A stretch of 64,000 nucleotides of DNA from Gelidibacter gilvus (lineage in GTDB: Bacteria > Bacteroidota > Bacteroidia > Flavobacteriales > Flavobacteriaceae). Made by a program: the position numbers and the translations under genes. Shown here piece after piece: positions 27,545 to 41,888 of this stretch; positions within the stretch are counted from its first letter, which is position 1; each line of letters begins with the position of its first letter. The DNA is taken from positions 1 to 64,000 of the forward strand of contig NZ_SDDZ01000016.1 in assembly GCF_004115975.1 (NCBI RefSeq), given 5' to 3'. The notes below the pieces were generated by a model. It made no database searches and was not told the DNA's origin. It saw only the letters and a program-made list of their open reading frames with translations.

Positions 27545-27585
27545 GTTTTAATCGATCATTTTTTTAAGCCAACACGAATTAAAAG

Positions 27586-27629
27586 TCCACCCTTCAGGAG
27601 GATTCAGGTGGGAGATTAGGAGGGAATCT
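27586..27629. repeat. CCACCCTTCAGG hairpin repeat overlapping the rhodanese stop
   Basis: CCACCCTTCAGGAGG and GATTCAGGTGGGAGATTAGG make an imperfect hairpin that covers the last codons (IPS and stop) of the minus-strand rhodanese gene. It resembles the purine-tailed hairpins found before several paa genes. Confidence 0.55.
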
Positions 27630-27927: not shown

Positions 27928-28002
27928 AGTTTTCTTTTGTTTAAATTTACAAAATATTGGACAAATTTTGAGCCATACACTTTGAATTTTAAACTTTGAA
28001 TC

Positions 28003-28575
28003 GTGAATACCGAAGGCACACGTAGAGACGAAATTATAAACACAGCCACAAAACTTTTTAAAGAAAAGGGCTATAGTGCGGTGACCATGCGAGATTTGGC
28101 AACGGCTATGGGCATGAAAGCGGCAAGTCTTTACAATCACATCAACTCCAAGCAAGAAATCCTCAAAGCCATCATCATTTCTTTGGCTGAAGAATTCACA
28201 CAAGGCATGGATATCATTAAAAAATCCGATCAAACGGCTATCGAAAAGTTAAATCTGATTGTTGCACTTCACGTCGATATTACAACAAAGAACCCATACG
28301 GAATGGCGTCCCTCAACAATGATTGGATGCATTTGGAAGGTCAACTCGAGTATTATTTGGGATTACGAGAGCGCTATGAGAAAGATTTTGTATCGATTAT
28401 CAAGAGCGGTATTTCTTCAAATGAAATTGTCGATACAAATCCTGAAGTAGTGATGTTTTCAATACTTTCAACACTTCGCTCCTTGTATTTATGGATCCCT
28501 CGAAAAGAAGAAATTAATGCAAAAGCCTTGGCTCAAAACTTGAGCGACGTTCTCATCAACGGAATTAACAAATAG
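28003..28575 (+). CDS. TetR-family regulator, probable repressor of the paa genes
   Basis: A 190-residue TetR protein: N-terminal helix-turn-helix (about 8-50, INTATKLFKEKGYSAVTMRDLATAMGMKAASLYNH) and a helical ligand domain. The start is GTG at 28003; no ATG lies upstream in frame before the conserved HTH. Directly downstream is a perfect 22-bp palindrome over the inferred transcription start of paaE. By analogy with PaaR proteins, phenylacetyl-CoA may be the inducer. That is inference from location. Confidence 0.85.
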   Translation: MNTEGTRRDEIINTATKLFKEKGYSAVTMRDLATAMGMKAASLYNHINSKQEILKAIIISLAEEFTQGMDIIKKSDQTAIEKLNLIVALHVDITTKNPYGMASLNNDWMHLEGQLEYYLGLRERYEKDFVSIIKSGISSNEIVDTNPEVVMFSILSTLRSLYLWIPRKEEINAKALAQNLSDVLINGINK

Positions 28576-28591
28576 TTTACAATTAATTTTG

Positions 28592-28599
28592 TAAATTTG
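28592..28599 (+). promoter_or_regulatory. -7 box TAAATTTG of the paa operon
   Basis: A perfect TAnnTTTG box just upstream of a palindrome. It predicts a start near 28605, that is, inside the operator candidate. The -33 part is weak. Confidence 0.55.
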
Positions 28600-28604
28600 T
28601 CACT

Positions 28605-28626
28605 CAAACTAACAAGTGTTAGTTTG
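28605..28626 (+). promoter_or_regulatory. TetR operator candidate
   Basis: CAAACTAACA-AG-TGTTAGTTTG is a perfect inverted repeat with ten-base arms. The half-site ACTAAC / GTTAGT fits the ACTnAC / GTnAGT half-sites described for some PaaR regulators. Its place at +1 of the promoter suits simple repression. I found no second copy elsewhere in the window. Confidence 0.65.
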
Positions 28627-28694
28627 ATGTCTGCAAGTTTTCCTATCCTCGAGATTAGGTATTTGTAGTTAAACTGAATTTAATAAAACAAAAA

Positions 28695-28728
28695 TTCCCT
28701 TTCCTTTGGAAAGGGTTAGGGATAGGAT
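28695..28728 (+). repeat. Start-proximal hairpin repeat before paaE
   Basis: TTCCCTTTCCTTTGGAAAGGG is a hairpin followed by the purine tail TTAGGGATAGGAT. It ends one base before the paaE ATG. Relatives occur before paaA, paaJ, paaZ and paaY. Confidence 0.8.
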
Positions 28729-28729
28729 T

Positions 28730-29803
28730 ATGGCAGAATTCCACAACCTCAAAGTGGCAGATATTTACAAGGAAACAAAAGATTGCGTAGTCATTGCTTT
28801 TGATGTTCCTGATGAGCTAAAGGAAAAATTCAAATACCGACAAGGTCAACATTTGACTTTGCGTAAGGAGTTAAATGGCGAGGACATCCGACGGAATTAT
28901 TCGTTGTGTTCAAGTCCGTTGGATGGCGAATGGAAAGTCGCTGTCAAAACCATACGGGACGGAGTCTTTTCAAATTATGCCTTTAACGAATTAAAAAAAG
29001 GGGACACTCTGGAAGTGATGGTGCCACACGGTGAATTTACGGTTGATGTGGATGTTTCGGCGCGTAACAATTACATCGCATTTGCGGCAGGAAGTGGTAT
29101 TACACCATTGTTATCCATAATTAAGACACACTTACATCAGGAGCCAAACAGCACCTTTAAGTTGTTTTACTTGAACCGAACCGTAAAATCCATTATCTTT
29201 AAAGAAGAAATCGAACAGCTTAAAAATGAGTTCTTTGAAAGGTTTCAAGTATTTTATTTTTTAACAAAAGAACAGCGCGATATTCCGTTTTTGAACGGAC
29301 GATTTGACAAGGAGAAATTAGCAGTGCTGACCAAAACCTTTATTGATATTCCAGATACGCAACATGCGTTCATCTGCGGACCACAAGATATGATTTACTT
29401 GATTCGCGATGAGTTACAAGCTGCAGGAATGCCTAAGGATAATATTCATTTCGAATTGTTTTTTACAGGCAGTTCTGAAGAAGAGAATAAACATATTGCA
29501 GAAGTCCTTGAACAAAGAATTGATGGCACACGTGTGACCATTATTGATGGCGGAAAAGAATTCCATTTCATTATGGATGATGATTTTGATACCATTCTTG
29601 ATGGTGCATTGGCTGCTGGAGCCGATTTGCCTTTTGCCTGTAAAGGTGGCGTTTGTAGTACCTGCAAATGTCAAGTCATAGAAGGTTCGGTCAAAATGAA
29701 AAAGAATTACGCACTCGCCGATAAGGAAGTGGCACAGAATTATGTATTGAGTTGTCAAGCCGTCCCAACAAGCGATAAAGTTGTGGTCGATTTTGATGTG
29801 TAG
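28730..29803 (+). CDS. paaE: Phenylacetyl-CoA epoxidase reductase PaaE
   Basis: The 357-residue reductase passes electrons from NAD(P)H to the PaaABC(D) epoxidase. FAD-binding motif RRNYSLCS (54-61), NAD part GSGITPLLSI (121-130), and a C-terminal plant-type 2Fe-2S ferredoxin domain with C304, C309, C312 and C342. An in-frame ATG at 28706 lies inside the hairpin repeat, so MAEFHNLKVADIY at 28730 is the likely start. First gene after the operator. Confidence 0.93.
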   Translation: MAEFHNLKVADIYKETKDCVVIAFDVPDELKEKFKYRQGQHLTLRKELNGEDIRRNYSLCSSPLDGEWKVAVKTIRDGVFSNYAFNELKKGDTLEVMVPHGEFTVDVDVSARNNYIAFAAGSGITPLLSIIKTHLHQEPNSTFKLFYLNRTVKSIIFKEEIEQLKNEFFERFQVFYFLTKEQRDIPFLNGRFDKEKLAVLTKTFIDIPDTQHAFICGPQDMIYLIRDELQAAGMPKDNIHFELFFTGSSEEENKHIAEVLEQRIDGTRVTIIDGGKEFHFIMDDDFDTILDGALAAGADLPFACKGGVCSTCKCQVIEGSVKMKKNYALADKEVAQNYVLSCQAVPTSDKVVVDFDV

Positions 29804-29811
29804 CAGGCATT

Positions 29812-29843
29812 AACCTGCAAGGTTTCTAAAACCTTGTAGGTTT
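29812..29843. repeat. AACCTGCAAGG palindrome
   Basis: AACCTGCAAGGTTT-CT-AAAACCTTGTAGGTTT: arms of about 14 bases. It lies in the paaE-paaA spacer. Confidence 0.75.
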
Positions 29844-29946
29844 AAATAAGAAAAAAAATAAGACGCAAAAATGGCGTTATACCAATTAGATTTTGAATGT
29901 TTAGTTGGTATTAAATATAAAAACTTAAAATCAAAGTCCCTATAAG

Positions 29947-29979
29947 CTCCCTCTCCTTCGGAGAGGGCTGGGGTGAGGC
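29947..29979 (+). repeat. Start-proximal hairpin repeat before paaA
   Basis: CTCCCTCTCCTTCGGAGAGGG hairpin followed by CTGGGGTGAGGC. It ends two bases before the paaA ATG. It is the GC-richer variant of the repeat before paaE. Confidence 0.75.
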
Positions 29980-29981
29980 TT

Positions 29982-30938
29982 ATGAGTGAAGAGCAAATAA
30001 GAAATTTAGAAAAGCAATTCGAAGAACGTATCGCAAGAGACGAAAAAATCGAACCGAAGGATTGGATGCCAGAAAAGTACCGTCAGACGCATATTCGTCA
30101 GATGTCACAGCATGCGCATTCAGAAGTCGTAGGGATGCTTCCAGAAGGGAATTGGATTACCAGAGCACCTTCTTTAAGACGAAAAGTAGCTTTGTTGGCA
30201 AAAGTCCAGGACGAAGCAGGTCATGGCCTGTATCTCTATTCTGCAACAGAAACTTTAGGTATTACACGTGAAGAAATGTATGAGCAATTGCATACTGGAA
30301 AGGCAAAATACTCAAGTATTTTCAACTATCCTACCGTTACTTGGGCCGATATGGGTGCTATTGGATGGTTGGTCGATGGCGCAGCTATCATCAATCAAGT
30401 GCCATTATGTAGCACTTCTTTTGGTCCTTATGCAAGAGCTATGGTAAGGGTTTGTAAGGAAGAAAGCTTTCATCAGCGGCAAGGTTATGAAATCATGATC
30501 AAGTTGGCAAATGGCACACCTGAACAAAAAGAAATGGCACAGGATGCTTTAAACCGATGGTGGTGGCCAAGTTTAATGATGTTGGGACCAACAGATGCCG
30601 AATCTGTCCATACCGAACAATCCATGAAATGGAAACTGAAACGTAAATCCAATGACGAATTACGTCAGCAATTCATTGATCAAACCGTTCCACAAGCAGA
30701 TTTAATAGGATTGACCATTCCTGACGCCGATTTAAAATGGAACGAAGAACGTGGAAGTTATGACTTTGGAGAAATCGATTGGGATGAGTTTTGGCAAGTG
30801 GTCAAAGGTCATGGCCCAATGAATAAGGAGCGAATGAAAGCCAGAGTTGGTGCATGGGAACGCGGCGAATGGGTGCGAGATGCAGCCATGGCGCACGCAG
30901 AAAAGAAAGCCGAAAGAAAAGAAAAAGAAGCAGTATAA
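29982..30938 (+). CDS. paaA: Phenylacetyl-CoA epoxidase catalytic subunit PaaA
   Basis: The 318-residue di-iron oxygenase subunit turns phenylacetyl-CoA into its ring 1,2-epoxide. Ligand motifs DEAGH and EESFH lie in the ferritin-like core, with [17 protein letters not shown] sequence near the end. The ATG at 29982 ([13 protein letters not shown]) is preferred over one nine bases upstream that falls in the repeat. The Lys/Glu-rich tail is ordinary for the family. Confidence 0.95.
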
Positions 30939-30942
30939 TAAG

Positions 30943-31022
30943 AACTTGAAATTGAGGATGAATTTGAAATTGAAGACCAATTAACTTCGAATTTGATTTC
31001 AAACTCGATTTCAATTTAATTC
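30943..31022. repeat. Word-iterated imperfect hairpin before paaB
   Basis: TTGAAATTGAGGATGAATTT and GAATTTGATTTCAAACTCG stretches on the two halves are roughly reverse complements, giving a stem of about 30 bases with mismatches. It has the same TTGAAATT vocabulary as the sequence around the four-helix-bundle gene at 31359. Confidence 0.65.
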
Positions 31023-31030
31023 ATAAAATT

Positions 31031-31318
31031 ATGTCAACTAAACAATGGCCACTTTGGGAAGTCTTCGTAAGAAGCAAAAACGGCTTGGAGCATCGTCATT
31101 TTGGAAGTCTGCACGCAGCAGATGCCGACATGGCACTTGAGAATGCGCGCGATGTTTACACCCGAAGAAATGAGGGCGTCAGCATTTGGGTCGTGGAATC
31201 CAAAAACATCACCGCATCCAATCCGGAACACAATGGCGAAATGTTTGAACCAGCAAAAGATAAAGTATATCGCCATCCCACTTTTTATGAGTTACCTGAT
31301 GAGGTGAAATATATGTAG
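31031..31318 (+). CDS. paaB: Phenylacetyl-CoA epoxidase subunit PaaB
   Basis: A 95-residue small subunit of the epoxidase, with WPLWEVFVRSKNGLEHRHFGS at its start and HPTFYELPDEVKYM at its end, as in the family. It bridges PaaAC units. Length is normal. Confidence 0.95.
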   Translation: MSTKQWPLWEVFVRSKNGLEHRHFGSLHAADADMALENARDVYTRRNEGVSIWVVESKNITASNPEHNGEMFEPAKDKVYRHPTFYELPDEVKYM

Positions 31319-31320
31319 CG

Positions 31321-31357
31321 TATAAGCTGAAGTTGAAATTGAAATTCAAATTGAAAA
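31321..31357 (+). repeat. Left inverted word repeat of four-helix-bundle gene 1
   Basis: GCTGAAGTTGAAATTGAAAT with AAATTGAAAAA after it. The complementary words AATTTCAATTT occur on the other side of the gene at 31747-31790. Confidence 0.6.
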
Positions 31358-31358
31358 A

Positions 31359-31715
31359 ATGAGTGAGAATAAATTTGATTTGAGTGATCGGTTAGAAGAC
31401 TTTGCAGCAACTATCATTTTGTTATATGATAAAAAGCCGTTGTCTTATGCTGGTGATTATTTGGCTAAACAACTCATTCGTTCTTCGTGTTCTTCAGCTT
31501 TGAATTATGGAGAAGTTTTAGGTGCTGGCACGGACAAAGATAAAATAAACAAGTTGCGAATTTGTTTAAAAGAATTAAGAGAGTGTCACAGAAATCTTAA
31601 TATTCAGACAAAAGCAAAACTATTTTCAAATGAAAATTTAACACCATTAAAAGATGAAAATGAGCAATTGATTCGAATAATGGTAACAAGAATTAAGAAT
31701 ATAAAACAAACTTGA
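31359..31715 (+). CDS. Four-helix-bundle protein (S23/IVP-like), copy 1
   Basis: A 118-residue helical protein with LAKQLIRSSCSSALNYGE and RICLKELRECHRNL, typical of the 23S-rRNA intervening-sequence protein family. These proteins lack known enzymatic motifs and may bind RNA or DNA. It sits between paaB and paaC in the operon direction, flanked by inverted word repeats. It has no known role in phenylacetate breakdown. It resembles the copy at 34016 more than that at 35704. Confidence 0.85.
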   Translation: MSENKFDLSDRLEDFAATIILLYDKKPLSYAGDYLAKQLIRSSCSSALNYGEVLGAGTDKDKINKLRICLKELRECHRNLNIQTKAKLFSNENLTPLKDENEQLIRIMVTRIKNIKQT

Positions 31716-31746
31716 GATCGAATTGTAATAGAAGAGATGAAATTAT

Positions 31747-31790
31747 GAATTTCAGCCTTTCAATTTCATTTTCGACTTCAATTTCAATTT
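31747..31790 (-). repeat. Right inverted word repeat of four-helix-bundle gene 1
   Basis: GAATTTCAGCCTTTCAATTT then CATTTTCGACTTC and AATTTCAATTT. It is the reverse-complement counterpart of 31321-31357, imperfect. Confidence 0.55.
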
Positions 31791-31795
31791 AAGAG

Positions 31796-32548
31796 ATGAA
31801 AAAGTCCCTATACAATTACATCCTCGGCATCGCCGACAACTCCCTAATCCTCGGTCAACGCATGGGTGAACTCTGCGGCCACGGACCGAGTTTGGAAACC
31901 GATATCGCCTGTACCAATATTTCTTTAGATTTATTTGGGCAGGTGCGTAGTTATTACCAATACGCGGCCAAAATTGCAGGTGATGGGCGTACAGAGGATG
32001 ATATTGCCATGCTTCGTAAAGAACGTGAGTATGTCAACGTGCTTTTGGTAGAACAACCCAACACCGATTTTGCTTATACCATGGCTCGCCATTTTTTATT
32101 TGATGTATATCACTTATTATTCTTGACAGAATTAAAAAAAAGTAAGGATATGACCTTGGCGGCAATCGCTACAAAATGCATTAAAGAGGTAAGATACCAT
32201 CAGCGTTTCTCATCGGATTGGATCAGACGTTTAGGCGACGGCACTGAAGAAAGTCAAAACCGAATGCAAGCAGCAATTAACGATTTATGGACCTATACCG
32301 ATGAATTGTTCCATCAAACCGAAGCTGATAAAGCCATGGTTTCAGAAGGCATTGGCGTAGATGTCACCAAATTAAAAGAAGCTTATTACGAAAAAGTAAA
32401 TACGATTTTAGAAGAATCAACCTTAACTATTCCAGAATCTAAATATTTCCAAAAAGGAGGGAAAATGGGGATTCATACAGAACATATGGGTTTTTTGCTA
32501 TCAGAATTGCAATACATGCAGCGCACTTACCCTAATATGGAATGGTAA
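31796..32548 (+). CDS. paaC: Phenylacetyl-CoA epoxidase subunit PaaC
   Basis: The 250-residue structural partner of PaaA with the same ferritin-like fold but a nonfunctional metal site in the family. Visible family sequences are LGQRMGELCGHGP, DIACTNISLDLFGQ and the later YHQRFSSDWIRRLGDG. It is separated from paaB by the four-helix-bundle gene. Confidence 0.94.
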   Translation: MKKSLYNYILGIADNSLILGQRMGELCGHGPSLETDIACTNISLDLFGQVRSYYQYAAKIAGDGRTEDDIAMLRKEREYVNVLLVEQPNTDFAYTMARHFLFDVYHLLFLTELKKSKDMTLAAIATKCIKEVRYHQRFSSDWIRRLGDGTEESQNRMQAAINDLWTYTDELFHQTEADKAMVSEGIGVDVTKLKEAYYEKVNTILEESTLTIPESKYFQKGGKMGIHTEHMGFLLSELQYMQRTYPNMEW

Positions 32549-32551
32549 CCA

Positions 32552-32612
32552 ATTCCTGCGAAGGCAGGAATCTCATGAAAGTGAAGCAATATATTCCGGC
32601 GAAAGCAGGAAT
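32552..32612. repeat. Two ATTCCTGC palindromes before paaD
   Basis: ATTCCTGCGAAGGCAGGAAT (32552-32571) is identical to the copy at 19812. ATTCCGGCGAAAGCAGGAAT (32593-32612) is a variant. The second ends ten bases before paaD. Confidence 0.85.
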
Positions 32613-32622
32613 CTCTTAGATA

Positions 32623-33135
32623 ATGAAATCTCTAATGATTACAACAGAACAACATATCGATGACATTTTAATTCCAATATTGGAGCAAGTTTCCGACCCG
32701 GAAATCCCAGTCCTCTCTATTATGGATATGGGTGTGGTGCGTTCTGCTGTTTTTGAAAATAGCATTGTAAAAGTTCAAATCACTCCAACATATAGTGGAT
32801 GCCCTGCCATGGATGTCATTGGTGACGATATAAAAAAAGCTTTAAAAGATGCGGGATATAAGTCGGAAGTAGAGTTGATTTTATCCCCAGCTTGGACCAC
32901 CGATTGGATAACACCAAGAGGCAGGAAAGCATTGGAAGATTATGGCATTGCAGCGCCTTTGGGAGTCGAAGCCGACAAAGATGTTTTACTACACGGGAAA
33001 CGCCTTGTAAAATGTCCACAATGTGGTTCAACAAACACAAAAATGGTGAGCCAGTTTGGTTCAACAGCATGTAAAGCACAGTTTCAGTGCGATGACTGTT
33101 TGGAGCCGTTTGATTATTTTAAATGTCTTAAGTAG
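32623..33135 (+). CDS. paaD: Phenylacetyl-CoA epoxidase maturation subunit PaaD
   Basis: A 170-residue protein with a DUF59/MIP18-type domain (about 10-105, ILEQVSDPEIPVLSIMDMGVV) and a C-terminal zinc-like module CPQCGST...CKAQFQCDDC...FKC. It is thought to help metal-centre assembly of the PaaABC complex. Start may be 32623 (MKSLM) or 32635 (MITTEQ). Confidence 0.92.
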   Translation: MKSLMITTEQHIDDILIPILEQVSDPEIPVLSIMDMGVVRSAVFENSIVKVQITPTYSGCPAMDVIGDDIKKALKDAGYKSEVELILSPAWTTDWITPRGRKALEDYGIAAPLGVEADKDVLLHGKRLVKCPQCGSTNTKMVSQFGSTACKAQFQCDDCLEPFDYFKCLK

Positions 33136-33143
33136 AATATAAT

Positions 33144-33177
33144 AACCTGCAAGGTTTTCAAAACCTTGTAGGTTTTT
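33144..33177. repeat. AACCTGCAAGG palindrome
   Basis: AACCTGCAAGGTTTT-C-AAAACCTTGTAGGTTTTT, the cleanest copy of this family. It lies in the paaD-paaG spacer. Confidence 0.85.
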
Positions 33178-33188
33178 GAATAGAAAGA

Positions 33189-33971
33189 ATGAACGAAAGT
33201 ATCTTATTAAAAATAGAAAACAAGATTGCGTATATCACGCTCAACCGCCCAGAGGTGTTCAATAGTTTTAATCGCGAAATGGCGTTACGGTTACAGGACA
33301 CACTTGATGCTTGTGAAAAAAATGATGCAGTTCGCGCCATCGTTTTGACTGGAAACGGAAAGGCATTCTGTGCGGGTCAAGATTTAAAAGAAGTGACATC
33401 TCCAGAATTAAATCCAGGTTTTAAGAAAATCTTGGAAGAACATTATAATCCGATAATCACAAGAATCCGCTCGATTAAAAAACCAATCATTGGTGCCATC
33501 AACGGCGTAGCCGCTGGAGCAGGAGCAAATATTGCTTTGGCTTGCGATATAGTAGTTGCTCATGAAAAGGTCAGTTTTATACAGGCATTTAGCCTCATTG
33601 GTTTGGTGCCAGATAGTGCAGGAACTTTCTTCTTGCCAAGACTTATCGGATTTCAAAAAGCATTGGCATTGGCTATGCTTGGCGATAAAGTATCCGCAGC
33701 AGAAGCTGAAAAAATGGGCATGATTTATAAAGTTCTGCCGTTAGAAAGTTTCGAAGAAGATGTCAATCAGTTGGCATTGAAACTTGCCAATATGCCCACA
33801 AAAGCATTAGGAATGATCAAGGAATTATTCAATGAATCTATGACCAACGATTTGGAAGCTCAGTTAGCATTGGAATCTAAATTTCAAATCGCAGCAGCAC
33901 AAACAGAAGATTATACGGAAGGAGTTGCGGCATTTGTTGAAAAAAGAAAACCGGAGTTTAAAGGTAAATGA
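33189..33971 (+). CDS. paaG: Ring-1,2-epoxyphenylacetyl-CoA isomerase PaaG
   Basis: A 260-residue crotonase-fold enzyme that isomerises the epoxide to oxepin-CoA. The oxyanion loops are FCAGQDLKE and NGVAAGAGAN. D142 in LVPDSAGTFFLPRL matches the catalytic Asp of PaaG rather than the two Glu of true hydratases. Its stop codon touches the left inverted repeat of the next four-helix-bundle gene. Confidence 0.92.
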   Translation: MNESILLKIENKIAYITLNRPEVFNSFNREMALRLQDTLDACEKNDAVRAIVLTGNGKAFCAGQDLKEVTSPELNPGFKKILEEHYNPIITRIRSIKKPIIGAINGVAAGAGANIALACDIVVAHEKVSFIQAFSLIGLVPDSAGTFFLPRLIGFQKALALAMLGDKVSAAEAEKMGMIYKVLPLESFEEDVNQLALKLANMPTKALGMIKELFNESMTNDLEAQLALESKFQIAAAQTEDYTEGVAAFVEKRKPEFKGK

Positions 33972-34012
33972 ATATCGAATATCGAACTGATTAATAATGA
34001 ATAACGAAGTTT
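33970..34012 (+). repeat. Left inverted repeat of four-helix-bundle gene 2
   Basis: GAATATCGAATATCGAAC and GAATAACGAAGTTT words. By eye, 34 of its 43 positions match the reverse complement of 34409-34450, with one gap. Confidence 0.75.
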
Positions 34013-34015
34013 AAA

Positions 34016-34384
34016 ATGGCAATTTATAAGTATGATTTGGAAGAACGTCTAATTCAGTTTGCTGTGGATGTTATTTTAATCTGTGGGAAAATTGACGGTA
34101 GTTTCGCCTCACAACATTTGTCAAAACAGTTAATTCGTTCAGCAACTTCCGCCGCTCTTAATTACGGAGAAGCGCAAAGTGCTGAGTCTGCGAAAGATTT
34201 TCTTCATAAAATGAGGTTATGCCTAAAAGAATTGAGAGAGTCCTTAGTCAATCTCAAGATTCAAAAAGGGGCAGATTTAATAAAAGACATTGAACGATTG
34301 GATCTGTTAATGAAAGAAAATAATGAACTAATTGCGATTTTCGTTTCAAGTATTCGCACATCACAAAATAAGAACAAAAGCTAA
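34016..34384 (+). CDS. Four-helix-bundle protein (S23/IVP-like), copy 2
   Basis: A 122-residue helical protein with LSKQLIRSATSAALNYGEAQ and RLCLKELRESLVNLKIQ, close in pattern to copy 1. It sits between paaG and paaH. It is bracketed on both sides by a 42-43-bp imperfect inverted repeat that begins at the paaG stop and ends at the paaH start. Confidence 0.87.
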   Translation: MAIYKYDLEERLIQFAVDVILICGKIDGSFASQHLSKQLIRSATSAALNYGEAQSAESAKDFLHKMRLCLKELRESLVNLKIQKGADLIKDIERLDLLMKENNELIAIFVSSIRTSQNKNKS

Positions 34385-34408
34385 ATATATGAATAGTATG
34401 ACTAAACT

Positions 34409-34450
34409 AAACTTCGATATTCGGTATTCAAAATTCAATATTCGTTATTC
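34409..34450 (-). repeat. Right inverted repeat of four-helix-bundle gene 2
   Basis: AAACTTCGATATTCGGTATT and TCAATATTCGTTATTC. It ends at the base before the paaH ATG. Confidence 0.75.
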
Positions 34451-35635
34451 ATGAAAATAGGAATTATCGGCTCAGGAACCATGGGAAGCGGCATCGCACA
34501 AGTAGCTGCTACAGCGGGTTGCAAAGTAAAATTATTCGACACCAATCAATCCGCATTGGACAAGGCAAAAGCAGCTTTGGATAAAATATTATCACGATTG
34601 ATTGAAAAAGATCGCATTGACGGTGACGAAAAGATCCGAATCCAAAGCAACATTTCCTACGTCGATGATTTAAAAGACCTATCAGACTCCGATTTGACCA
34701 TTGAAGCGATTGTTGAAAACCTGGACATCAAGAAAAAGGTGTTTTCAGAATTGGAAACCTATGTTTCAGAACACTGTATCATTGCCTCCAATACGTCAAG
34801 TCTTTCGATTGCTTCCATTGCAGCCTCCTTAAAAAGGCCAGAACGTTGTATAGGAATTCATTTTTTCAATCCAGCGCCATTGATGCAACTAGTAGAAGTG
34901 ATTCCAGCCATTCAAACCTCAAAAGAAGTTTTGGAGAAATCTGTGAAAATCATATCCGATTGGAAAAAAATTGTTGCCGTTGCAAAAGACACGCCTGGAT
35001 TTATAGTCAATCGGGTGGCAAGACCTTTTTATGGTGAAGCCTTAAGAATATACGAAGAAGGTATTGCCGATTTTATAACCATAGATGAAAGCCTGAAAAC
35101 TTTAGGGGGTTTCAAAATGGGGCCTTTCGAATTAATGGATTTCATAGGAAATGATGTTAATTATACAGTAACAGAAACTGTTTTTACTGCTTTTTATTTC
35201 GACCCGAGATACAAGCCAGCCTTTACCCAAAAACGTTTGGCTGAAGCTGGTTATTTGGGCAGAAAATCAGGTAAAGGGTATTATAACTATGATAAAAGTG
35301 GTGGTATAATCATTCCTGAACGCGATTACTATCGGGAGAAGGACTCTCATGATAAAAAACTATCGCAACACATATTCGATCGTGTTCTCGTCATGCTTAT
35401 CAACGAAGCTGTCGATGCTTTGTTCTGGAATATCGCAACCGCGGAAGCTATTGATGAGGCTATGACCAAAGGGGTCAACTACCCAAAAGGATTATTAGCG
35501 TGGGCAAATGAAAAAGGAATCGATTGGTGCGTTTCAAAAATGGATGAATTATATAATGAATATCATGAGGATAGATATCGGTGTAGCCCGTTGTTGAGGA
35601 GGATGAATATAGGTGGTTTGAGGTTTGAGGTATGA
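34451..35635 (+). CDS. paaH: 3-hydroxyadipyl-CoA dehydrogenase PaaH
   Basis: A 394-residue NAD-dependent 3-hydroxyacyl-CoA dehydrogenase with GSGTMGSG at 7-14 and IGIHFFNPAPLMQLVEV containing the catalytic His. Two dehydrogenase C-terminal domains follow. It probably oxidises 3-hydroxyadipyl-CoA. The last residues (GGLRFEV) are encoded by an iterated stretch GGTTTGAGGTTTGAGG, so the native end may have been replaced. Confidence 0.9.
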   Translation: MKIGIIGSGTMGSGIAQVAATAGCKVKLFDTNQSALDKAKAALDKILSRLIEKDRIDGDEKIRIQSNISYVDDLKDLSDSDLTIEAIVENLDIKKKVFSELETYVSEHCIIASNTSSLSIASIAASLKRPERCIGIHFFNPAPLMQLVEVIPAIQTSKEVLEKSVKIISDWKKIVAVAKDTPGFIVNRVARPFYGEALRIYEEGIADFITIDESLKTLGGFKMGPFELMDFIGNDVNYTVTETVFTAFYFDPRYKPAFTQKRLAEAGYLGRKSGKGYYNYDKSGGIIIPERDYYREKDSHDKKLSQHIFDRVLVMLINEAVDALFWNIATAEAIDEAMTKGVNYPKGLLAWANEKGIDWCVSKMDELYNEYHEDRYRCSPLLRRMNIGGLRFEV

Positions 35636-35673
35636 CAAGGCAGAGCCATAGAGATCATTTTTGGAGTCATAAT

Positions 35674-35702
35674 GGGATTAGGTATTAGGCATTTGGAATT
35701 AG
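35674..35702 (+). repeat. Left inverted repeat of four-helix-bundle gene 3
   Basis: AGGCATTTGGAATTAG at 35687-35702 is a perfect 16-base inverse of 36097-36112. It is preceded by GGGATTAGGTATT words. It ends one base before the gene's ATG. Confidence 0.85.
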
Positions 35703-35703
35703 T

Positions 35704-36093
35704 ATGAAAAGTGAATTTCATTTTAAGTTTGAAGATTTACAAGTTTATCAAAAGGCGATGGACTTTGGGGAAGTTGTGGATGCAATAGTGAAAAAATTTC
35801 CAGCATACGAATTGTATGCATTATCATCACAGTTCAGAAGAGCAGCTGATTCAATTGCGTTGAATATTGCAGAAGGCTATCCCGGTTCTGATGCACAATT
35901 TGTTAAGCACATAAATTATGCTATTTATAGCGCGAATGAGTGTGTTAGTTGCAGTACGAAAGCTAAACGAAGACAATATATTGATTTTGATGAAGATGAA
36001 GAAAATAGAAAGTTGATTTCAGAATTGACGAAAATGATGTCTTCCTTAAGAAATAAGATTTTAGAAAGAAACGCAAAAATAACTAATCCCTAA
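35704..36093 (+). CDS. Four-helix-bundle protein (S23/IVP-like), copy 3
   Basis: A 129-residue protein with the classic family start FEDLQVYQKAMDFGEVV and LSSQFRRAADSIALNIAEGY. It is a different subfamily from copies 1 and 2. It sits between paaH and paaI and is flanked by a perfect 16-bp inverted repeat. Its final codons (ITNP and stop) lie in the word sequence ACTAATCCCTAATCCC next to the right arm. Confidence 0.88.
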   Translation: MKSEFHFKFEDLQVYQKAMDFGEVVDAIVKKFPAYELYALSSQFRRAADSIALNIAEGYPGSDAQFVKHINYAIYSANECVSCSTKAKRRQYIDFDEDEENRKLISELTKMMSSLRNKILERNAKITNP

Positions 36094-36112
36094 TCCCTAA
36101 TTCCAAATGCCT
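36082..36112 (-). repeat. Right inverted repeat of four-helix-bundle gene 3
   Basis: ACTAATCCCTAATCC then CTAATTCCAAATGCCT (36097-36112), the perfect inverse of 35687-35702. It contains the ATG of paaI at 36107 and the stop of the four-helix-bundle gene. Confidence 0.85.
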
Positions 36113-36520
36113 TTAAAAGGAAACCTCATCCCCTACAAAATGCTCTCACTCGACGCCTACAGCACCTACCTCGGCATTGAAATTTTAGAATGCGAGATTG
36201 GTCGTTGTAAAGTTGGGATGACCATCAGAAAAGATATGCTAAATAGCATGGGAAAGGCCCACGGCGGCATCAGTTATTCATTGGCAGATACCGCTTTCGG
36301 TTTTGCAGCAAATACGCATGGTAAATATGCGGTTTCCATTGAAACGAGCATCAATCACATTGAAGCTTTAAATGAAGGTGATTATATAGTGGCGGAATCC
36401 GTAATTGAGAAAGTGAAAAATAAATTAGGATTCAATATTATCGAGGTAAAACGAGGCGAGGAATTAGTAGCTCTTTTTAAAGGAGTTGTATATAGAACCA
36501 ATAAAGATTGGGAAAATTAA
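36107..36520 (+). CDS. paaI: Hotdog-fold thioesterase PaaI
   Basis: A 137-residue hotdog thioesterase with NSMGKAHGGISYSLADTAFGFA, the family active-site helix. PaaI is thought to rescue trapped CoA by hydrolysing ring-hydroxylated phenylacetyl-CoA side products. The start codon lies within an inverted-repeat arm, so its first two residues (MP) come from repeat sequence. Confidence 0.9.
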   Translation: MPLKGNLIPYKMLSLDAYSTYLGIEILECEIGRCKVGMTIRKDMLNSMGKAHGGISYSLADTAFGFAANTHGKYAVSIETSINHIEALNEGDYIVAESVIEKVKNKLGFNIIEVKRGEELVALFKGVVYRTNKDWEN

Positions 36521-36569
36521 AAAAGAATGTTTTAAATTTAATAACTAATAATTTTAAACACTAAAAAAT

Positions 36570-37427
36570 ATGAAATGGCAAGGTAGAAGAGAAAGTGGTA
36601 ATTTGGAAGACCGACGCGGAATGTCCAATAAAGGGAAAATGGCTGCTGGTGGTGGCTTAATTGCAGTTGTAGTAGTTTTGCTACAAATGTTTGGTGGTGA
36701 TACCGGACAAGTATTGGCACCAATTCTTGAAGGTGTAACACAGTCAAGTTCACAGCCGACTGAACAGCGCGAATTGACCGAACGAGAAAAGGAGTCAGGT
36801 GTTCTTTTTAAAAGAATTCTAGCAAGTACGGAAGATACCTGGAATCAAATTTTCAGTGAAAATAACCTTGGAAAGTATGACAAACCAGGAATGGTATTGT
36901 TCACGGACGCTGTCAGAACAGGGTGTGGAAATGCAAGCGCAGCTTCAGGACCGTTCTATTGTCCTGCAGATCAGAAAGTATATATGGATTTAGCTTTTTT
37001 TGATGAGCTGCAATCTCGATTTGGAGCAAAGGGTGGTGATTTTGCCATGGCATATGTAACCGCTCACGAAATTGGTCATCATATTCAAACCGTGCTTGGG
37101 ACGTCTCAAAAAGTAAGGCAGATGCAACAACAATCCAGTACAGCACAAGCCAATCAACTTTCGGTAGCACAAGAACTTCAAGCCGACTTTTATGCAGGTG
37201 TTTGGGCATACTATAACAAAGAGTATTTGGAAGAAGGGGATATTGAAGAAGCCTTAAGTGCTGCTAATGCAGTTGGTGATGATGCCATTCAAAAAAGAAC
37301 GCAAGGCAGTGTGCAACCAGATAGCTTTACCCATGGAACCTCTGAACAACGCATGCATTGGTTTATGAAAGGCTATAAATCTGGCGATATCAGACAAGGC
37401 GATACGTTTTCGGAATTATTGAATTAA
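36570..37427 (+). CDS. Neutral zinc metallopeptidase (YpfJ family)
   Basis: A 285-residue membrane-anchored protein: one hydrophobic helix near 25-41 (AAGGGLIAVVVVLLQMFGG), then a peptidase domain with CGNASAASGPFYCPADQ and HEIGHH (166-171). The family is widespread, with uncertain physiological role. Its place between paaI and paaJ in the operon direction is unusual; no link to phenylacetate use is known to me. Confidence 0.88.
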   Translation: MKWQGRRESGNLEDRRGMSNKGKMAAGGGLIAVVVVLLQMFGGDTGQVLAPILEGVTQSSSQPTEQRELTEREKESGVLFKRILASTEDTWNQIFSENNLGKYDKPGMVLFTDAVRTGCGNASAASGPFYCPADQKVYMDLAFFDELQSRFGAKGGDFAMAYVTAHEIGHHIQTVLGTSQKVRQMQQQSSTAQANQLSVAQELQADFYAGVWAYYNKEYLEEGDIEEALSAANAVGDDAIQKRTQGSVQPDSFTHGTSEQRMHWFMKGYKSGDIRQGDTFSELLN

Positions 37428-37445
37428 ACAAACGATTAATAATTG

Positions 37446-37477
37446 AACCTGCAAGGCTTCCAAAACCTTGTAGTTTT
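37446..37477. repeat. AACCTGCAAGG palindrome, diverged
   Basis: AACCTGCAAGGCTTC-CAAAACCTTGTAGTTTT. It lies in the spacer before paaJ. Confidence 0.7.
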
Positions 37478-37511
37478 GAAAGATAATATTTTTAAATAAT
37501 AACTAAACAAG

Positions 37512-37543
37512 TTCCCTTTCCTTCGGAAAGGGTTAGGGATAGG
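37512..37543 (+). repeat. Start-proximal hairpin repeat before paaJ
   Basis: TTCCCTTTCCTTCGGAAAGGG followed by TTAGGGATAGG. It ends one base before the paaJ ATG and is almost identical to the copy before paaE. Confidence 0.85.
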
Positions 37544-37544
37544 A

Positions 37545-38759
37545 ATGAAAGAAGCATATATCATAGACGGAATCAGAACGCCTATAGGAAGTTATCAAGG
37601 CACTTTATCTGCAGTAAGATCAGATGATTTAGCAGCTTTGGTCATAGAAGAAATTGTCAAACGAAATCCGAACATTCCAAAAGAGGCGTATGACGATGTC
37701 ATTTTAGGTTGTGCTAATCAAGCGGGCGAGGACAACCGAAATGTGGCGCGTATGGCTTTACTTTTAGCAGGATTGCCATTTACCGTTCCAGGTGAAACGG
37801 TCAACCGCTTATGCAGCTCGGGATTATCCGCAATTATTCACGCTAATCGCGCCATAAAAGCTGATGATGGTGACGTTTTTATTGCTGGAGGTGTGGAGCA
37901 TATGACCCGTGGACCATATGTAGTTGCCAAACCATCCAGTGCATTTGGAACCGATGCTAAAATGTACGATTCGAGTTTTGGATGGCGCTTTGTCAATCCG
38001 AAAATGGAAAAATTATATGGAACCGATGGTATGGGGCAAACTGCAGAAAATCTCGTGGAGAAATATAAGATCTCTCGAGAAGATCAAGATAAGTTTGCCT
38101 ATTGGAGTCAGATGAAAGCGGCAAAAGCGCAGGAAAATGGAAGATTGTCAAAAGAAATTATGACTGTTGAAATTCCACAACGAAAGAAAGATCCCATTCT
38201 GTTTTCAAAAGATGAATTTGTAAAACCGAATACCTCTTTAGAGGTTTTAGGGAAATTGCGCGGGGCATTCAAAGCTGAAGGAGGAAGCGTCACCGCTGGA
38301 AATTCCTCAGGATTGAATGATGGAGCAGCGGCAACAATTATTGCTTCTGAAGCAGCTGTAAAAAAATACAATTTAAAACCATTGGCAAGAATTGTAAGTT
38401 CAGCAGTGGTTGGTGTCGAACCAAGAATTATGGGGATCGGTCCAGTGGAAGCCTCTAATAAAGCATTGGAAAAAGCAGGACTGACCATGGACGATATGGA
38501 CATCATCGAGCTCAACGAAGCCTTCGCAGCACAAGCTTTGGCATGCACAAGAGCTTGGGGATTGGCAGATGACGATCCAAGATTGAACCCTAACGGAGGT
38601 GCCATTGCCATTGGTCATCCGCTCGGTGTAACGGGAACACGAGTAGCCTATTCTGCTGCTTTAGAGTTGCAAGAAACAAGAAAACGATATGCCTTGGTTA
38701 CCATGTGTATTGGGGTTGGACAAGGTTATGCGGCAATAATTGAAAATGTGAATTTGTAG
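37545..38759 (+). CDS. paaJ: 3-oxoadipyl-CoA/3-oxo-5,6-dehydrosuberyl-CoA thiolase PaaJ
   Basis: A 404-residue thiolase with the nucleophile C90 in RLCSSGLSA, the GHPLGVTG histidine loop and the second cysteine in TMCIGVGQG. It cleaves the beta-keto acyl-CoAs late in the pathway to acetyl-CoA and succinyl-CoA. PcaF of the protocatechuate route is nearly identical in family terms; context favours PaaJ. Confidence 0.92.
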   Translation: MKEAYIIDGIRTPIGSYQGTLSAVRSDDLAALVIEEIVKRNPNIPKEAYDDVILGCANQAGEDNRNVARMALLLAGLPFTVPGETVNRLCSSGLSAIIHANRAIKADDGDVFIAGGVEHMTRGPYVVAKPSSAFGTDAKMYDSSFGWRFVNPKMEKLYGTDGMGQTAENLVEKYKISREDQDKFAYWSQMKAAKAQENGRLSKEIMTVEIPQRKKDPILFSKDEFVKPNTSLEVLGKLRGAFKAEGGSVTAGNSSGLNDGAAATIIASEAAVKKYNLKPLARIVSSAVVGVEPRIMGIGPVEASNKALEKAGLTMDDMDIIELNEAFAAQALACTRAWGLADDDPRLNPNGGAIAIGHPLGVTGTRVAYSAALELQETRKRYALVTMCIGVGQGYAAIIENVNL

Positions 38760-38762
38760 TAT

Positions 38763-38900
38763 TTGGGCGTTACCCGAAAAGGGTCGCCCTTTCACTACTC
38801 GCTTCCCAACGAAAGGGTGGGAGAGCTCAAACAGACCGCTCAAATGCGGAGCATTCACGATTTCTTAATTATCAAATAAGAATGAATGAGTAATCGCTAA
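38763..38900. repeat. GGGCGTTACCC repeat, copy 1
   Basis: TTGGGCGTTACCC, then GGGTCGCCCTTTCACTACTC and GCTTCCC...GGGAGAGCTCAAACA. A matching copy lies at 43515-43603; both are followed by AATCGCTAACGCA. The ends can pair, giving hairpins. No gene visible. Confidence 0.8.
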
Positions 38901-38905
38901 CGCAG

Positions 38906-38937
38906 ACCTCAAAGGTTTCAAAAACCTGTGAGGTTTA
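38906..38937. repeat. AACCT palindrome, diverged
   Basis: ACCTCAAAGGTTT-CA-AAAACCTGTGAGGTTT hairpin, related to the AACCTGCAAGG family. Confidence 0.6.
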
Positions 38938-38976
38938 TGCAGGAATGAATTAGGATTAGAAGTTTAATTAATAAAA

Positions 38977-39007
38977 AGCCCTTGCCTTTGGAAAGGGTTG
39001 GGATAGG
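38977..39007 (+). repeat. Start-proximal hairpin repeat before paaZ
   Basis: AGCCCTTGCCTTTGGAAAGGG and TTGGGATAGG. It touches the paaZ ATG directly. Confidence 0.8.
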
Positions 39008-41506
39008 ATGAAAAAAATACAAAATTACGTCACAGGACAATGGATAGAAGGTAAAGGAGAAGGAGTGCCGATGTTTGATGCCATAACAGGCGAAGTCGTA
39101 GCTCTTTCAGATACTCAAGGACTGGATTTTGCCGAAATTCTTCACTATGGAAGAACCAAAGGCGGCGAAGTGCTTCGTAAAATGACCTTTCAAGAACGTG
39201 GGAACATGTTGAAAAGTCTCGCATTATATCTTACCAAAAGGAAAGAGGCTTTTTACGAATTGAGTTATAGAACTGGCGCGACCAGAGTGGATAGTTGGAT
39301 TGATATTGAAGGTGGATTTGGTAATCTTTTTGCCAATGCGTCCTTAAGAAAATTATTCCCTAACCAATCCTATCACGTCGAAGGAGAGCCTATCGATTTA
39401 TCACGCGGTGGACGCTTTATGGCACATCATATTATGGTACCAAAACGTGGGGTGGCTGTTCATATCAACGCCTTTAATTTTCCGGTATGGGGCATGCTGG
39501 AGAAATGCGCATCAAATTGGATGGCAGGCGTTCCTGCAGTGGTGAAACCTGCAACAAATGGCTCGTTTTTAACGGAAGCTGTGGTGCGTGAAATTATAGC
39601 ATCACGCATTTTACCAGAAGGCGCATTACAATTAATTACAGGATCAGCAAGAACAATTTTAGATACGGTCCAATCTCAAGATGTGGTGACTTTCACGGGA
39701 TCTGCAACCACTGGTCGCCTCTTAAAATCGCATAAACGTATTATTGAAGAATCCGTCCCATTTAATATGGAAGCAGATTCTTTAAACGCTTCTGTTTTAG
39801 GTGAAGATGCTGTTCCGGGAACACCAGAATTTGATTTGTTTATCAAAGAAGTCAGGAATGAAATGACGGTCAAATGCGGACAGAAATGTACGGCAATCCG
39901 TAGAATTATTGTACCGCAAGATCTGGTCGAAGATGTTCAGATTGCCTTAGGAAAAGCCTTGGACAAAGTCACTATTGGCGATCCAAGACTTAAAGAAGTC
40001 AGAATGGGCGCTTTGATAAGTAAAGATCAGGTTTTAGAAGTTAGAAATCGAGTTGAGGAATTGGCTAAAACTGCCAGCATCGTTTATGGCGATTTGGATA
40101 AAATAGAAACCATTGGTGCCGATGCCAAAAAAGGAGCGTTTTTAAGTCCGATTTTGCTTCGCGAAGACCATCCATTTAAAAATTTATCAGTTCACGAAAC
40201 CGAAGCTTTTGGTCCAGTAAGTACCATCATGCCCTATAAAAATATAGATGAAGCTATTACCTTGGCGCAAATGGGGAAAGGTTCTTTAGTATCTTCTATT
40301 GCAACATTTGACGATAAAATTGCCAAAGAATATGTCGTTAATGCTGCAAGTCACCACGGACGGATTTTAGTCATCAATCGAGAAATGGCAAAGGAAAGCA
40401 CAGGTCATGGTTCACCATTGCCAAACTTAGTGCACGGAGGTCCAGGACGTGCAGGAGGAGGCGAAGAAATGGGAGGCGTGAGAGGTATTAAGCATTACTT
40501 ACAACGAACCGCAATTCAAGGCTCACCAACAACACTGACGGAAATTACCGGAATTTATCAAGCCAACGCAAAATATAAAGAAGCCGATCAGCATCCGTTT
40601 AAATACCATTGGGAAGACATTCAACCTGGAATGTCGTTAAAAACCCACAAACGGACACTTACGGATACGGATATAATCAATTTCTCCAATCTCACATGGG
40701 ATCACTTTTACGCGCATACAGATATCACTTCCTTAGACGGGAGCATTTTTGAGAAGCGAACTGCCCATGGCTATTTTATCATCGCAGCGGCCGCTGGATT
40801 GTTCGTGTATCCAAATAAAGGCCCTGTAGCTGCTAATTATGGATTGGAGGACTGTCGATTCTTACGCCCATTATATCATAACGATACAATTTATGTGCGA
40901 TTGACCTGTAAGCAAAAAGTGGATAGAGATGTCGCTTCCGCAGAACATCCAAGTGGAATTGTCAAATGGTTTGTTGAGGTTTTTGATGCGGAAGATGAAT
41001 TGGTGGCCGTCGCTACAATTTTAACCATGGTTCAAAAGAAACAAGAAGTATTTGTTGAATTGACCGATAATAAAATTCAAGAGCTTCTTTCAAAGCTAAC
41101 TCCAGGCATGAAACCAAAATGGGGAATCATGACGCCACAACATATGTTGGAACACTTGGAATACACTTATAAAATTGCTTCAGGTGAGATACAGGATTTT
41201 GAAGTGGCAACACCAGAAAAGATATTAGAAAAGGTTCACGCAAGTCTTTATACCTATGATAAGTTTCCAAGAAATACATATTTCCCGTTGCTCGAAAAAG
41301 ATAAGTTGGAAGCTTTAAAATATCCAGATTTAGAGACTGCGAAACAAAAGTTCCAAGAGCAAAGAGAAAAGTATTTGGAGTTTTTTAAGGAGCATCCAGA
41401 AGCAAAATTGAAAAACTTGGTTTTTGGTGAATTGAACAAATATGAATCTTATTTGTTGGAAAGAAAGCACCTTAACCATCACTTTGAACAGTTTGGGCTT
41501 TTGTAG
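39008..41506 (+). CDS. paaZ: PaaZ: ring-opening hydratase/aldehyde dehydrogenase with extra C-terminal domain
   Basis: PaaZ hydrolyses oxepin-CoA (MaoC-type hydratase domain) and oxidises the resulting aldehyde. Residues 1-515 are the aldehyde dehydrogenase (E255, catalytic C294 in KCGQKCTA) and about 530-680 the MaoC domain (TWDHFYAHTD). The protein is 832 residues, about 150 more than the two-domain form such as that of E. coli. The extra part (about 690-832) has MTPQHMLEHLEY (H712, H716) and HLNHHFEQFG (H821, H824, H825), resembling DUF1569/DinB-type helical metal-binding proteins. The role of this addition is unknown. A hairpin spans the stop codon. Confidence 0.93.
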   Translation: MKKIQNYVTGQWIEGKGEGVPMFDAITGEVVALSDTQGLDFAEILHYGRTKGGEVLRKMTFQERGNMLKSLALYLTKRKEAFYELSYRTGATRVDSWIDIEGGFGNLFANASLRKLFPNQSYHVEGEPIDLSRGGRFMAHHIMVPKRGVAVHINAFNFPVWGMLEKCASNWMAGVPAVVKPATNGSFLTEAVVREIIASRILPEGALQLITGSARTILDTVQSQDVVTFTGSATTGRLLKSHKRIIEESVPFNMEADSLNASVLGEDAVPGTPEFDLFIKEVRNEMTVKCGQKCTAIRRIIVPQDLVEDVQIALGKALDKVTIGDPRLKEVRMGALISKDQVLEVRNRVEELAKTASIVYGDLDKIETIGADAKKGAFLSPILLREDHPFKNLSVHETEAFGPVSTIMPYKNIDEAITLAQMGKGSLVSSIATFDDKIAKEYVVNAASHHGRILVINREMAKESTGHGSPLPNLVHGGPGRAGGGEEMGGVRGIKHYLQRTAIQGSPTTLTEITGIYQANAKYKEADQHPFKYHWEDIQPGMSLKTHKRTLTDTDIINFSNLTWDHFYAHTDITSLDGSIFEKRTAHGYFIIAAAAGLFVYPNKGPVAANYGLEDCRFLRPLYHNDTIYVRLTCKQKVDRDVASAEHPSGIVKWFVEVFDAEDELVAVATILTMVQKKQEVFVELTDNKIQELLSKLTPGMKPKWGIMTPQHMLEHLEYTYKIASGEIQDFEVATPEKILEKVHASLYTYDKFPRNTYFPLLEKDKLEALKYPDLETAKQKFQEQREKYLEFFKEHPEAKLKNLVFGELNKYESYLLERKHLNHHFEQFGLL

Positions 41507-41522: not shown

Positions 41523-41579
41523 CACCCGAGAAATCGGGTGTCCCTTAAATATAGGCCTAATTAATGATTTTCTGTTTTT

Positions 41580-41876: not shown

Positions 41877-41888
41877 TTAATAATTAAA

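What the first reader, a model, noticed from the sequence alone, without database searches (positions are those of the whole stretch)
31321..36112. Three four-helix-bundle genes in the paa operon, each framed by its own inverted repeat
The genes at 31359, 34016 and 35704 belong to the S23/IVP-like four-helix-bundle family and occupy three spacers of one operon. Each is bracketed by inverted, word-iterated DNA: TTGAAATT words around the first, a 42-43-bp imperfect inverted repeat (34 of 43 matches counted by eye) around the second, a perfect 16-bp pair (AGGCATTTGGAATTAG) around the third. The words differ between copies, but the layout is the same. Arms touch neighbouring start or stop codons without breaking them. 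Such a unit (small helical protein plus cognate inverted word repeats) could be an undescribed mobile or self-spreading element that targets spacers.
Basis: partly seen in the sequence, partly recalled or inferred. Interest (0 to 1): 0.82.

Follow-up and report, generated by a model that had tools for sequence, protein, structure and literature searches.

The report
Helical-protein genes framed by seven-letter repeats
Three small genes inside one operon are each bracketed by mirror-image arrays of a short repeated word, and the same gene family is framed this way across many phyla, which points to an apparently undescribed kind of travelling gene cassette and a possible owner for some unexplained seven-letter repeats in bacterial DNA.

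Summary
Each of the three PF05635/TIGR02436 four-helix-bundle genes (31359, 34016, 35704) has inverted flanks that none of 200 shuffles reached. Among relatives, 64 of 109 such genes have inverted flanks, against 4 of 307 random genes and 1.8% when flanks of different copies are paired. The arms are mostly heptamer arrays, G-rich on the 5' side. A wider set (many phyla, viral contigs) gives 70 of 107. Related genes at unrelated sites share the word. At one spacer, two species with 94-96% identical flanking DNA carry different cassettes: gene and both arms differ together, up to the neighbours' stop and start codons. In nine genus genomes the three genes are present in 4, 8 and 5. Proteins are under purifying selection (median dN/dS 0.06); 84 of 96 lie co-directionally with both neighbours. 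Arm mismatches show no G-U preference, so an RNA stem is not supported. Best reading: gene plus word arrays is a DNA-level cassette riding operon spacers, its protein probably acting on its own arrays. Movement was not observed; one pre-stated prediction (GATT arrays tracking their gene) failed. Closest kinds: rRNA intervening sequences and REP-RAYT units.

The parts
31328..31356 (.). 5' arm of the first cassette, TTGAAA-type hexamer words
   Evidence: 24 of 29 columns match the reverse complement of the 3' arm; 0 of 200 shuffles
31359..31715 (+). F1, four-helix-bundle gene in the paaB-paaC spacer
   Evidence: PF05635 43.0 bits, TIGR02436 69.5 bits
31758..31786 (.). 3' arm of the first cassette
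33968..34013 (.). 5' arm of the second cassette, GAATATC-type heptamer words; begins at the paaG stop codon
   Evidence: 37 of 46 columns; 0 of 200 shuffles
34016..34384 (+). F2, four-helix-bundle gene in the paaG-paaH spacer
   Evidence: PF05635 42.7 bits, TIGR02436 75.7 bits
34408..34452 (.). 3' arm of the second cassette; ends two bases into the paaH start codon
35674..35702 (.). 5' word array of the third cassette (GGNATTA-type heptamers); perfect 16-bp arm is 35687-35702
   Evidence: 16 of 16; array extent read
35704..36093 (+). F3, four-helix-bundle gene in the paaH-paaI spacer
   Evidence: PF05635 93.9 bits, TIGR02436 92.1 bits
36083..36112 (.). 3' word array of the third cassette; contains the F3 stop and the paaI ATG; perfect 16-bp arm is 36097-36112
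   Evidence: 16 of 16; array extent read
30940..31025 (.). gene-less hairpin-like stretch of TTGAAA words in the paaA-paaB spacer (solo form)
   Evidence: best internal inverted repeat 10.5, below my cut-off of 13

Best explanation
Each unit is a cassette: a four-helix-bundle (S23/IVP family) gene plus a word array on each side, arranged as an inverted repeat with the G-rich strand of the word pointing inward. Gene and both arrays are inherited, lost and exchanged together, in co-directional operon spacers, so the gene is probably read from the host transcript. I infer that arrays of the same word elsewhere act as homology pads or landing sites, and that the protein (a ring-forming protein in a solved relative) acts on its own word arrays at DNA level to keep or spread the cassette. 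Shown: the architecture, its breadth, unit exchange, word-gene linkage, purifying selection, operon orientation. Inferred: DNA-level action, protein-word recognition, active spreading, dependence on read-through.
For: Inverted flanks in 64 of 109 genes and 40 of 57 independent sites against 4 of 307 random genes, 15 of 479 neighbours, 1.8% for cross-paired flanks and 0.37% for shuffles. Period 7. 70 of 107 in a wide set from many phyla and viral contigs. G-rich 5' arm in 34 of 40 sites and 64 against 5 in the wide set. Whole-cassette difference between G005 and G007 in 94-96% identical flanks, own-arm scores 18 and 17, crossed 8 and 10. Word shared by related genes at different sites: 11 of 27 pairs at >=60% identity against 36 of 2219 below 35%; 16 of 56 against 4 of 716 below 40% in the wide set. 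dN/dS median 0.06 in 17 chosen pairs. Co-directional with both neighbours 84 of 96 against 155 of 279. No excess of G-U-compatible mismatches, 85 against 101. CAGT arrays within the genus: 90-316 where an unbroken CAGT-lineage gene exists, 55 where both copies are broken, 9 and 16 where none was found.
Against: No movement was observed and no target duplication found. The pre-stated GATT prediction failed. CAGT arrays do not follow the gene outside the genus: G014 and G018 have an unbroken CAGT-lineage gene but 6 and 1 matches, G019 and G024 have 72 and 59 without a close one. GATGACG arrays are only weakly linked. 45 of 109 genes lack inverted flanks at my cut-off and 12 have direct arrays. 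Protein-word binding is untested. Words shared by related genes could also be old shared ancestry.
Confidence: 0.5

Rival explanations
1. RNA-level: the arms pair in the operon mRNA across the cistron, like the stem of a 23S rRNA intervening sequence, and RNase III excises or regulates the segment.
For: S23/IVP genes in rRNA are bordered by complementary sequence and cut out by RNase III (PMC4990558, first part of the text). Cassettes lie in sense within operon spacers. The G-rich 5' / C-rich 3' polarity is tied to transcription.
Against: Mismatches in the arms do not favour G-U pairs: 85 compatible against 101 not, p = 0.27. 12 of 109 genes have direct arrays, which cannot pair this way.
Confidence: 0.2
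2. Passive: replication slippage and template switching in quasi-palindromes make and equalise the arms (recalled mechanism), and the genes are ordinary operon members moved by homologous recombination.
For: Heptamer arrays occur without the gene. The words in the two arms are not always in the same order (third cassette). Neighbouring operon genes recombine normally as far as tested.
Against: Random genes in the same genomes are framed in 4 of 307 cases and have periodic sequence on both flanks in 0 of 307, so the association with this one family needs a cause. Related genes at unrelated sites share words.
Confidence: 0.22
3. Accessory of another mobile system: the protein works with a reverse transcriptase, Y1 transposase or GIY-YIG nuclease encoded elsewhere.
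For: PF05635 resembles Avd, the accessory protein of diversity-generating retroelements (PMC10053308, passages). GIY-YIG genes lie near and in the same operon, and 8 of 24 tested are themselves framed by inverted repeats.
Against: No Y1 match was found in G005 or G007, which hold cassettes and many arrays. The repeats around GIY-YIG genes are mostly of other kinds. Reverse transcriptases were not searched for.
Confidence: 0.08

Closest known systems
23S rRNA intervening sequences with an S23/IVP ORF
   Same: Same protein family and an ORF bordered by complementary sequence (PMC4990558, first part).
   Different: Here the units lie in operon spacers; no rRNA was found in the window region scanned or in 20 of the wide-set loci. 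The arms are word arrays, and no RNA-pairing preference was seen.
REP sequences with REP-associated tyrosine transposases (RAYTs)
   Same: A gene flanked by two inverted copies of a repeat that also occurs alone elsewhere; the repeat type is linked to the gene lineage (PMC2817692, abstract and passages).
   Different: The protein matched no family but the four-helix-bundle ones at E 0.001 in Pfam and NCBIfam, so no Y1 domain; the repeats are tandem words rather than GT(A/G)G-headed palindromes; the gene-dependence of solo arrays is not consistent.
Heptameric repeats of Xanthomonas, Nostoc and Beggiatoaceae
   Same: Intergenic heptamer arrays; many GGGAATC arrays of Xanthomonas occur as inverted pairs (PMC4692102, passages); TAACTGA arrays also in some Bacteroidetes (PMC4679880, abstract and one section).
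   Different: Neither paper's main text names a four-helix or S23 protein (term searches). Link to a gene family is what is added here.
Avd of diversity-generating retroelements
   Same: Related four-helix-bundle fold (PMC10053308, passages).
   Different: No template or variable repeat or reverse transcriptase was looked for by profile; none was recognised by eye among the ORFs.

Membership tests
PF05635 / TIGR02436 four-helix-bundle (S23/IVP) family | profile score above the curated cut-off | tested here: met
   all three proteins; profile of 32 relatives matches solved 2RLD and 2GSC
23S rRNA intervening sequence | S23/IVP ORF bordered by complementary sequence | tested here: met
23S rRNA intervening sequence | location inside an rRNA gene | tested here: not met
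   spacers of the paa operon; no Rfam match in window 27000-43000
23S rRNA intervening sequence | excision by RNase III | not testable with these tools
   only indirect: no G-U preference in arms
REP-RAYT unit | gene flanked by inverted copies of its repeat | tested here: met
REP-RAYT unit | Y1 (PF01797-type) transposase encoded by the gene | tested here: not met
   Pfam scan of the three proteins gives only PF05635 at E 0.001
REP-RAYT unit | solo repeats dispersed in the genome and dependent on the cognate gene | tested here: inconclusive
   CAGT agrees within the genus, not outside it; GATT does not agree
Transposon with terminal inverted repeats | target-site duplication on insertion | tested here: inconclusive
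   three sites compared with relatives; none obvious, but spacers are too diverged for a clean empty site
Diversity-generating retroelement | reverse transcriptase with template and variable repeats | not tested
   no profile search for reverse transcriptase was made

The most novel reading that the evidence does not exclude
Many heptameric repeat arrays in bacteria and archaea are pads or footprints of one pan-phylum class of selfish cassette: a ring-forming four-helix-bundle protein that recognises its own lineage-specific seven-letter word and, without a nuclease or transposase of its own, spreads or maintains its gene between inward-pointing word arrays in operon spacers. A typical array (median 32 nt) would suit a five-subunit ring taking about seven nucleotides per subunit; that last step is speculation.
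Probability: 0.3. Interest if true: 0.92.

Novelty: new variant of a known kind. Interest (0 to 1): 0.8.

Why it matters
Heptamer repeats were noted as over-represented in bacteria with little follow-up (PMC4692102, passages), and the S23/IVP proteins are described as having no known function (PMC4990558, first part). Finding that one frames the other, with the word travelling along with the gene, gives both a joint hypothesis that simple binding and exchange experiments can test. It also suggests that rRNA intervening sequences may be a special case of a broader class of hairpin-framed elements.

Tried and rejected
Rejected: (1) chance or AT-richness: shuffles, cross-paired flanks and random genes do not reproduce it. 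(2) Ordinary conserved operon members: presence varies within the genus. (3) Selection on an RNA stem: no G-U preference. (4) A dispersed gene-less element with the exact GATT/GAAGT...ACTTC/AATC inner ends: found at one site only, in two genomes (no mismatches allowed). (5) A known RNA family in window 27000-43000: none at gathering score. (6) Gene-less hairpins as a general feature of spacers: 47 of 404 co-directional spacers reach score 13 and only 9 of these are heptamer-periodic; their polarity is 6 against 3, not significant.

Failed or weak: the GATT prediction (G001 69, G003 16, G007 39, G008 156 with the gene; G000 107, G002 18, G004 70, G006 57 without; G005 16); GATGACG; the density contrast between random stretches of 4HB-rich and 4HB-free genomes (21 in 400 kb against 8 in 357 kb at the loose threshold; 5 against 0 at the strict one).

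Limits and dropped rows: three minus-strand loci were read on the wrong strand; corrected. The listing was cut ('more matches are not listed'), and three matches on tiny contigs of G024 were not fetched. Of 129 distinct family ORFs, 20 were dropped before the count (under 95 aa or short flanks). Of 127 wide-set loci, 13 were unusable and 7 more were duplicates. Phylum groups were assigned by hand from record titles. The 17 dN/dS pairs were chosen by me from same-site pairs. Control stretches were taken at positions not chosen for family genes, but on contigs I already knew of. One idea from memory, heptamer repeats of consensus TDNGATT in a Nostoc tRNA intron, was not tested.
Full report
OBSERVATION. 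The window lies in a 4.63-Mb genome. The three genes are PF05635/TIGR02436 four-helix-bundle genes in the paaB-paaC, paaG-paaH and paaH-paaI spacers. (The paa names are mine, from the translations and recalled knowledge; no profile search was made for them.) Their flanks form inverted repeats of 24/29, 37/46 and 16/16 matching columns, and none of 200 dinucleotide shuffles reached each score. Nine family matches in this genome exceed the Pfam cut-off and three more are weak or broken; seven of the nine pass the same test, two do not. The words differ: TTGAAA, GAATATC and GGNATTA in the window; CAGTGTT, AACCACA, CAGTCG and GAGTTAT elsewhere in the genome.

IS IT GENERAL? From 39 genomes (own plus 38 relatives, 27 with a match) I assembled 109 full-length family genes with both flanks. 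64 of 109 have inverted flanks at score 13 or more, against 0.37% of shuffles and 1.8% when the left flank of one gene is paired with the right flank of another. Controls: 15 of 479 other genes at the same loci, 1 of 72 of similar size; 4 of 307 genes, 0 of 46 of similar size, in random stretches of 4HB-rich genomes; 6 of 262, 0 of 25 of similar size, in 4HB-free genomes. The 109 genes fall into 57 sites, 40 with inverted flanks. 12 of 109 have direct-orientation similarity between the flanks (1.25% expected from cross-pairs).

ANATOMY. The arms are tandem arrays, mostly of period 7: the best lag is 7 in 46 of 64 genes with arms, 8 in 10 and 6 in 8; 104 of 218 flanks are lag-7 periodic against 1 to 15 for lags 5, 6 and 8 to 12. 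Both flanks are periodic for 35 of 109 genes, 0 of 307 random genes and 10 of 292 genes at loci near family genes. Median array length is about 32 nt. The 5' arm carries the G-rich strand in 56 of 64 genes and 34 of 40 sites (p = 8e-6), the opposite of the mild skew at ordinary genes. Family genes are co-directional with both neighbours in 84 of 96 cases against 155 of 279 random genes, and with the upstream gene in 93 of 96 against 205 of 279.

BEYOND THE ORDER. A subfamily profile search gave 80 loci from many phyla and 47 viral contigs. Inverted flanks at score 13: Bacteroidota 29 of 50, Cyanobacteria 3 of 6, other phyla 13 of 17, viral 30 of 41; shuffles 0.3-1.2%. After de-duplication 70 of 107, with the G-rich arm 5' in 64 and 3' in 5. 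A planctomycete locus (L271) scores 64.5 with GGTGGAC-type words; three cyanobacterial loci use GGGAATA-type words. No rRNA was found in 20 of these loci scanned with Rfam.

UNIT BEHAVIOUR. Within the genus, F1 is present in 4 of 9 genomes, F2 in 8 of 9, and F3 as an open frame in 5 of 9 (in G003 its start matches in two frames) with remnants in 2. At the paaG-paaH spacer two cassette versions exist. G005 and G007 have flanking DNA 94-96% identical but F2 proteins 70% identical and unrelated words: own-arm scores 18 and 17, crossed 8 and 10. The difference starts at the paaG stop and ends at the paaH start. G004 keeps only the 3' arm; in G006 a word hairpin stands where the 5' part of F3 would be, followed by a 3' remnant. 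At site L001 only this genome, of the eight compared, has the gene; G004, G002 and G006 have gene-less CAGT-type word stretches there, G001 and G005 have none. At L002 the gene is again only in this genome and the whole spacer differs; at L003 it is in three of eight, and several of the others keep left-arm-like words. Across unrelated sites, arms of different cassettes pair with each other in 11 of 27 pairs at 60% or more protein identity, 10 of 156 at 45-60%, 4 of 372 at 35-45% and 36 of 2219 below 35%. In the wide set: 16 of 56, 24 of 389, 26 of 1641 and 4 of 716 for 60 and over, 50-60, 40-50 and below 40%. So the word tends to stay with the gene lineage across sites. Proteins are under purifying selection: dN/dS 0.03-0.19, median 0.06, in 17 chosen pairs.

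SOLO ARRAYS. In the paa operon of relatives, gene-less hairpins often share the word, and often the inner end (GAAGT...ACTTC), with the resident F2 cassette: GAAT in G006, GATT in G001, G003, G007, G008. Exceptions are GATT in G005 and GAAT in paaC-paaD of G003; G004, without F2, has none of these words in a hairpin. Genome-wide, four-unit CAGT arrays (overlapping matches, both strands; reversed-pattern control in brackets) number 90 (19), 316 (3), 150 (42), 148 (11), 149 (0) and 166 (0) in G000, G001, G002, G004, G005 and G007, which have an unbroken CAGT-lineage gene; 55 (4) in G008, where both copies are broken; 9 (1) and 16 (8) in G003 and G006, where I found none. Outside the genus this does not hold: G014 and G018 have an unbroken lineage member but 6 and 1 matches, and G019 and G024 have 72 and 59 without a close one. 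A prediction noted before the search, that GATT arrays would follow the GATT-word gene, failed; GATGACG arrays were only weakly linked. Random stretches hold 21 lag-7 arrays in 400 kb of 4HB-rich genomes and 8 in 357 kb of 4HB-free ones. A REP-RAYT-like dependence is therefore open.

DNA OR RNA? If the arms were kept as an RNA stem, mismatches leaving a G-U pair should exceed the opposite transitions. They do not: 85 against 101 in 110 arms (40 one-per-site plus 70 wide-set, p = 0.27). This argues for DNA-level maintenance or plain copying between arms. It does not exclude RNA roles; the operon orientation and the G-rich 5' arm may hint at one.

MECHANISM. Best reading: a cassette (gene plus word arrays) riding operon spacers, exchanged and lost as a unit, with matching arrays as homology pads and the protein acting on its own arrays. 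Solved relatives are 2RLD and 2GSC, each with five chains in one entry; the Xanthomonas protein is reported as a homopentamer of four-helix bundles (PMC4990558), and the family resembles Avd (PMC10053308). Protein-word recognition and active spreading are inference. The main rivals are an RNA-level stem as in rRNA intervening sequences, and passive slippage and template switching that would not explain why this family is singled out.

KNOWN OR NEW. In the searched library (result listings, with abstracts, passages or sections of six papers seen) I found heptamer arrays, inverted heptamer pairs, S23 intervening sequences and REP-RAYT units, but no paper that links heptamer arrays to four-helix-bundle genes. 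Most subscription papers are not in that library. The unit fails the rRNA-location test of intervening sequences and the Y1 test of RAYTs, while sharing the layout of both; I therefore file it as a new variant and keep 'a class of its own' as the novel case.

Noticed in passing
window 41598-41822: A GIY-YIG nuclease gene with one in-frame TAG lies between paaZ and the next operon gene; relatives of the genus have GIY-YIG genes near their paa operons too.
   Followed up: partly
L054, L135, L138, L140, L144, L150, L152, L153: 8 of 24 solo GIY-YIG genes tested are themselves framed by inverted repeats, mostly of other kinds such as TGTCAGGCTGAGC and ATTCCTGCGAAGGCAGGAAT.
   Followed up: partly
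window about 29808-29850, 33143-33176, 37445-37475: Short hairpins of the type AACCTGCAAGGTTTTCAAAACCTTGTAGGTT sit in several operon spacers; their nature was not examined.
   Followed up: no
window about 4241-4350, 13132-13460, 15948-16050: Long CAGT- and GATT-type heptamer arrays without a four-helix-bundle gene; the window is far richer in lag-7 arrays (13 in 64 kb) than random stretches of related genomes (21 in 400 kb).
   Followed up: partly
L054 (G018, another genus): Its paa operon carries four family genes or fragments, in paaB-C, paaC-D, paaG-H and paaI-J, so the same operon is colonised again in another genus.
   Followed up: partly
literature, PMC10910872: A CRISPR discovery screen names '23S rRNA IVP' in a figure legend (one passage seen); heptamer arrays taken for repeat arrays might explain it. 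This is a guess.
   Followed up: no
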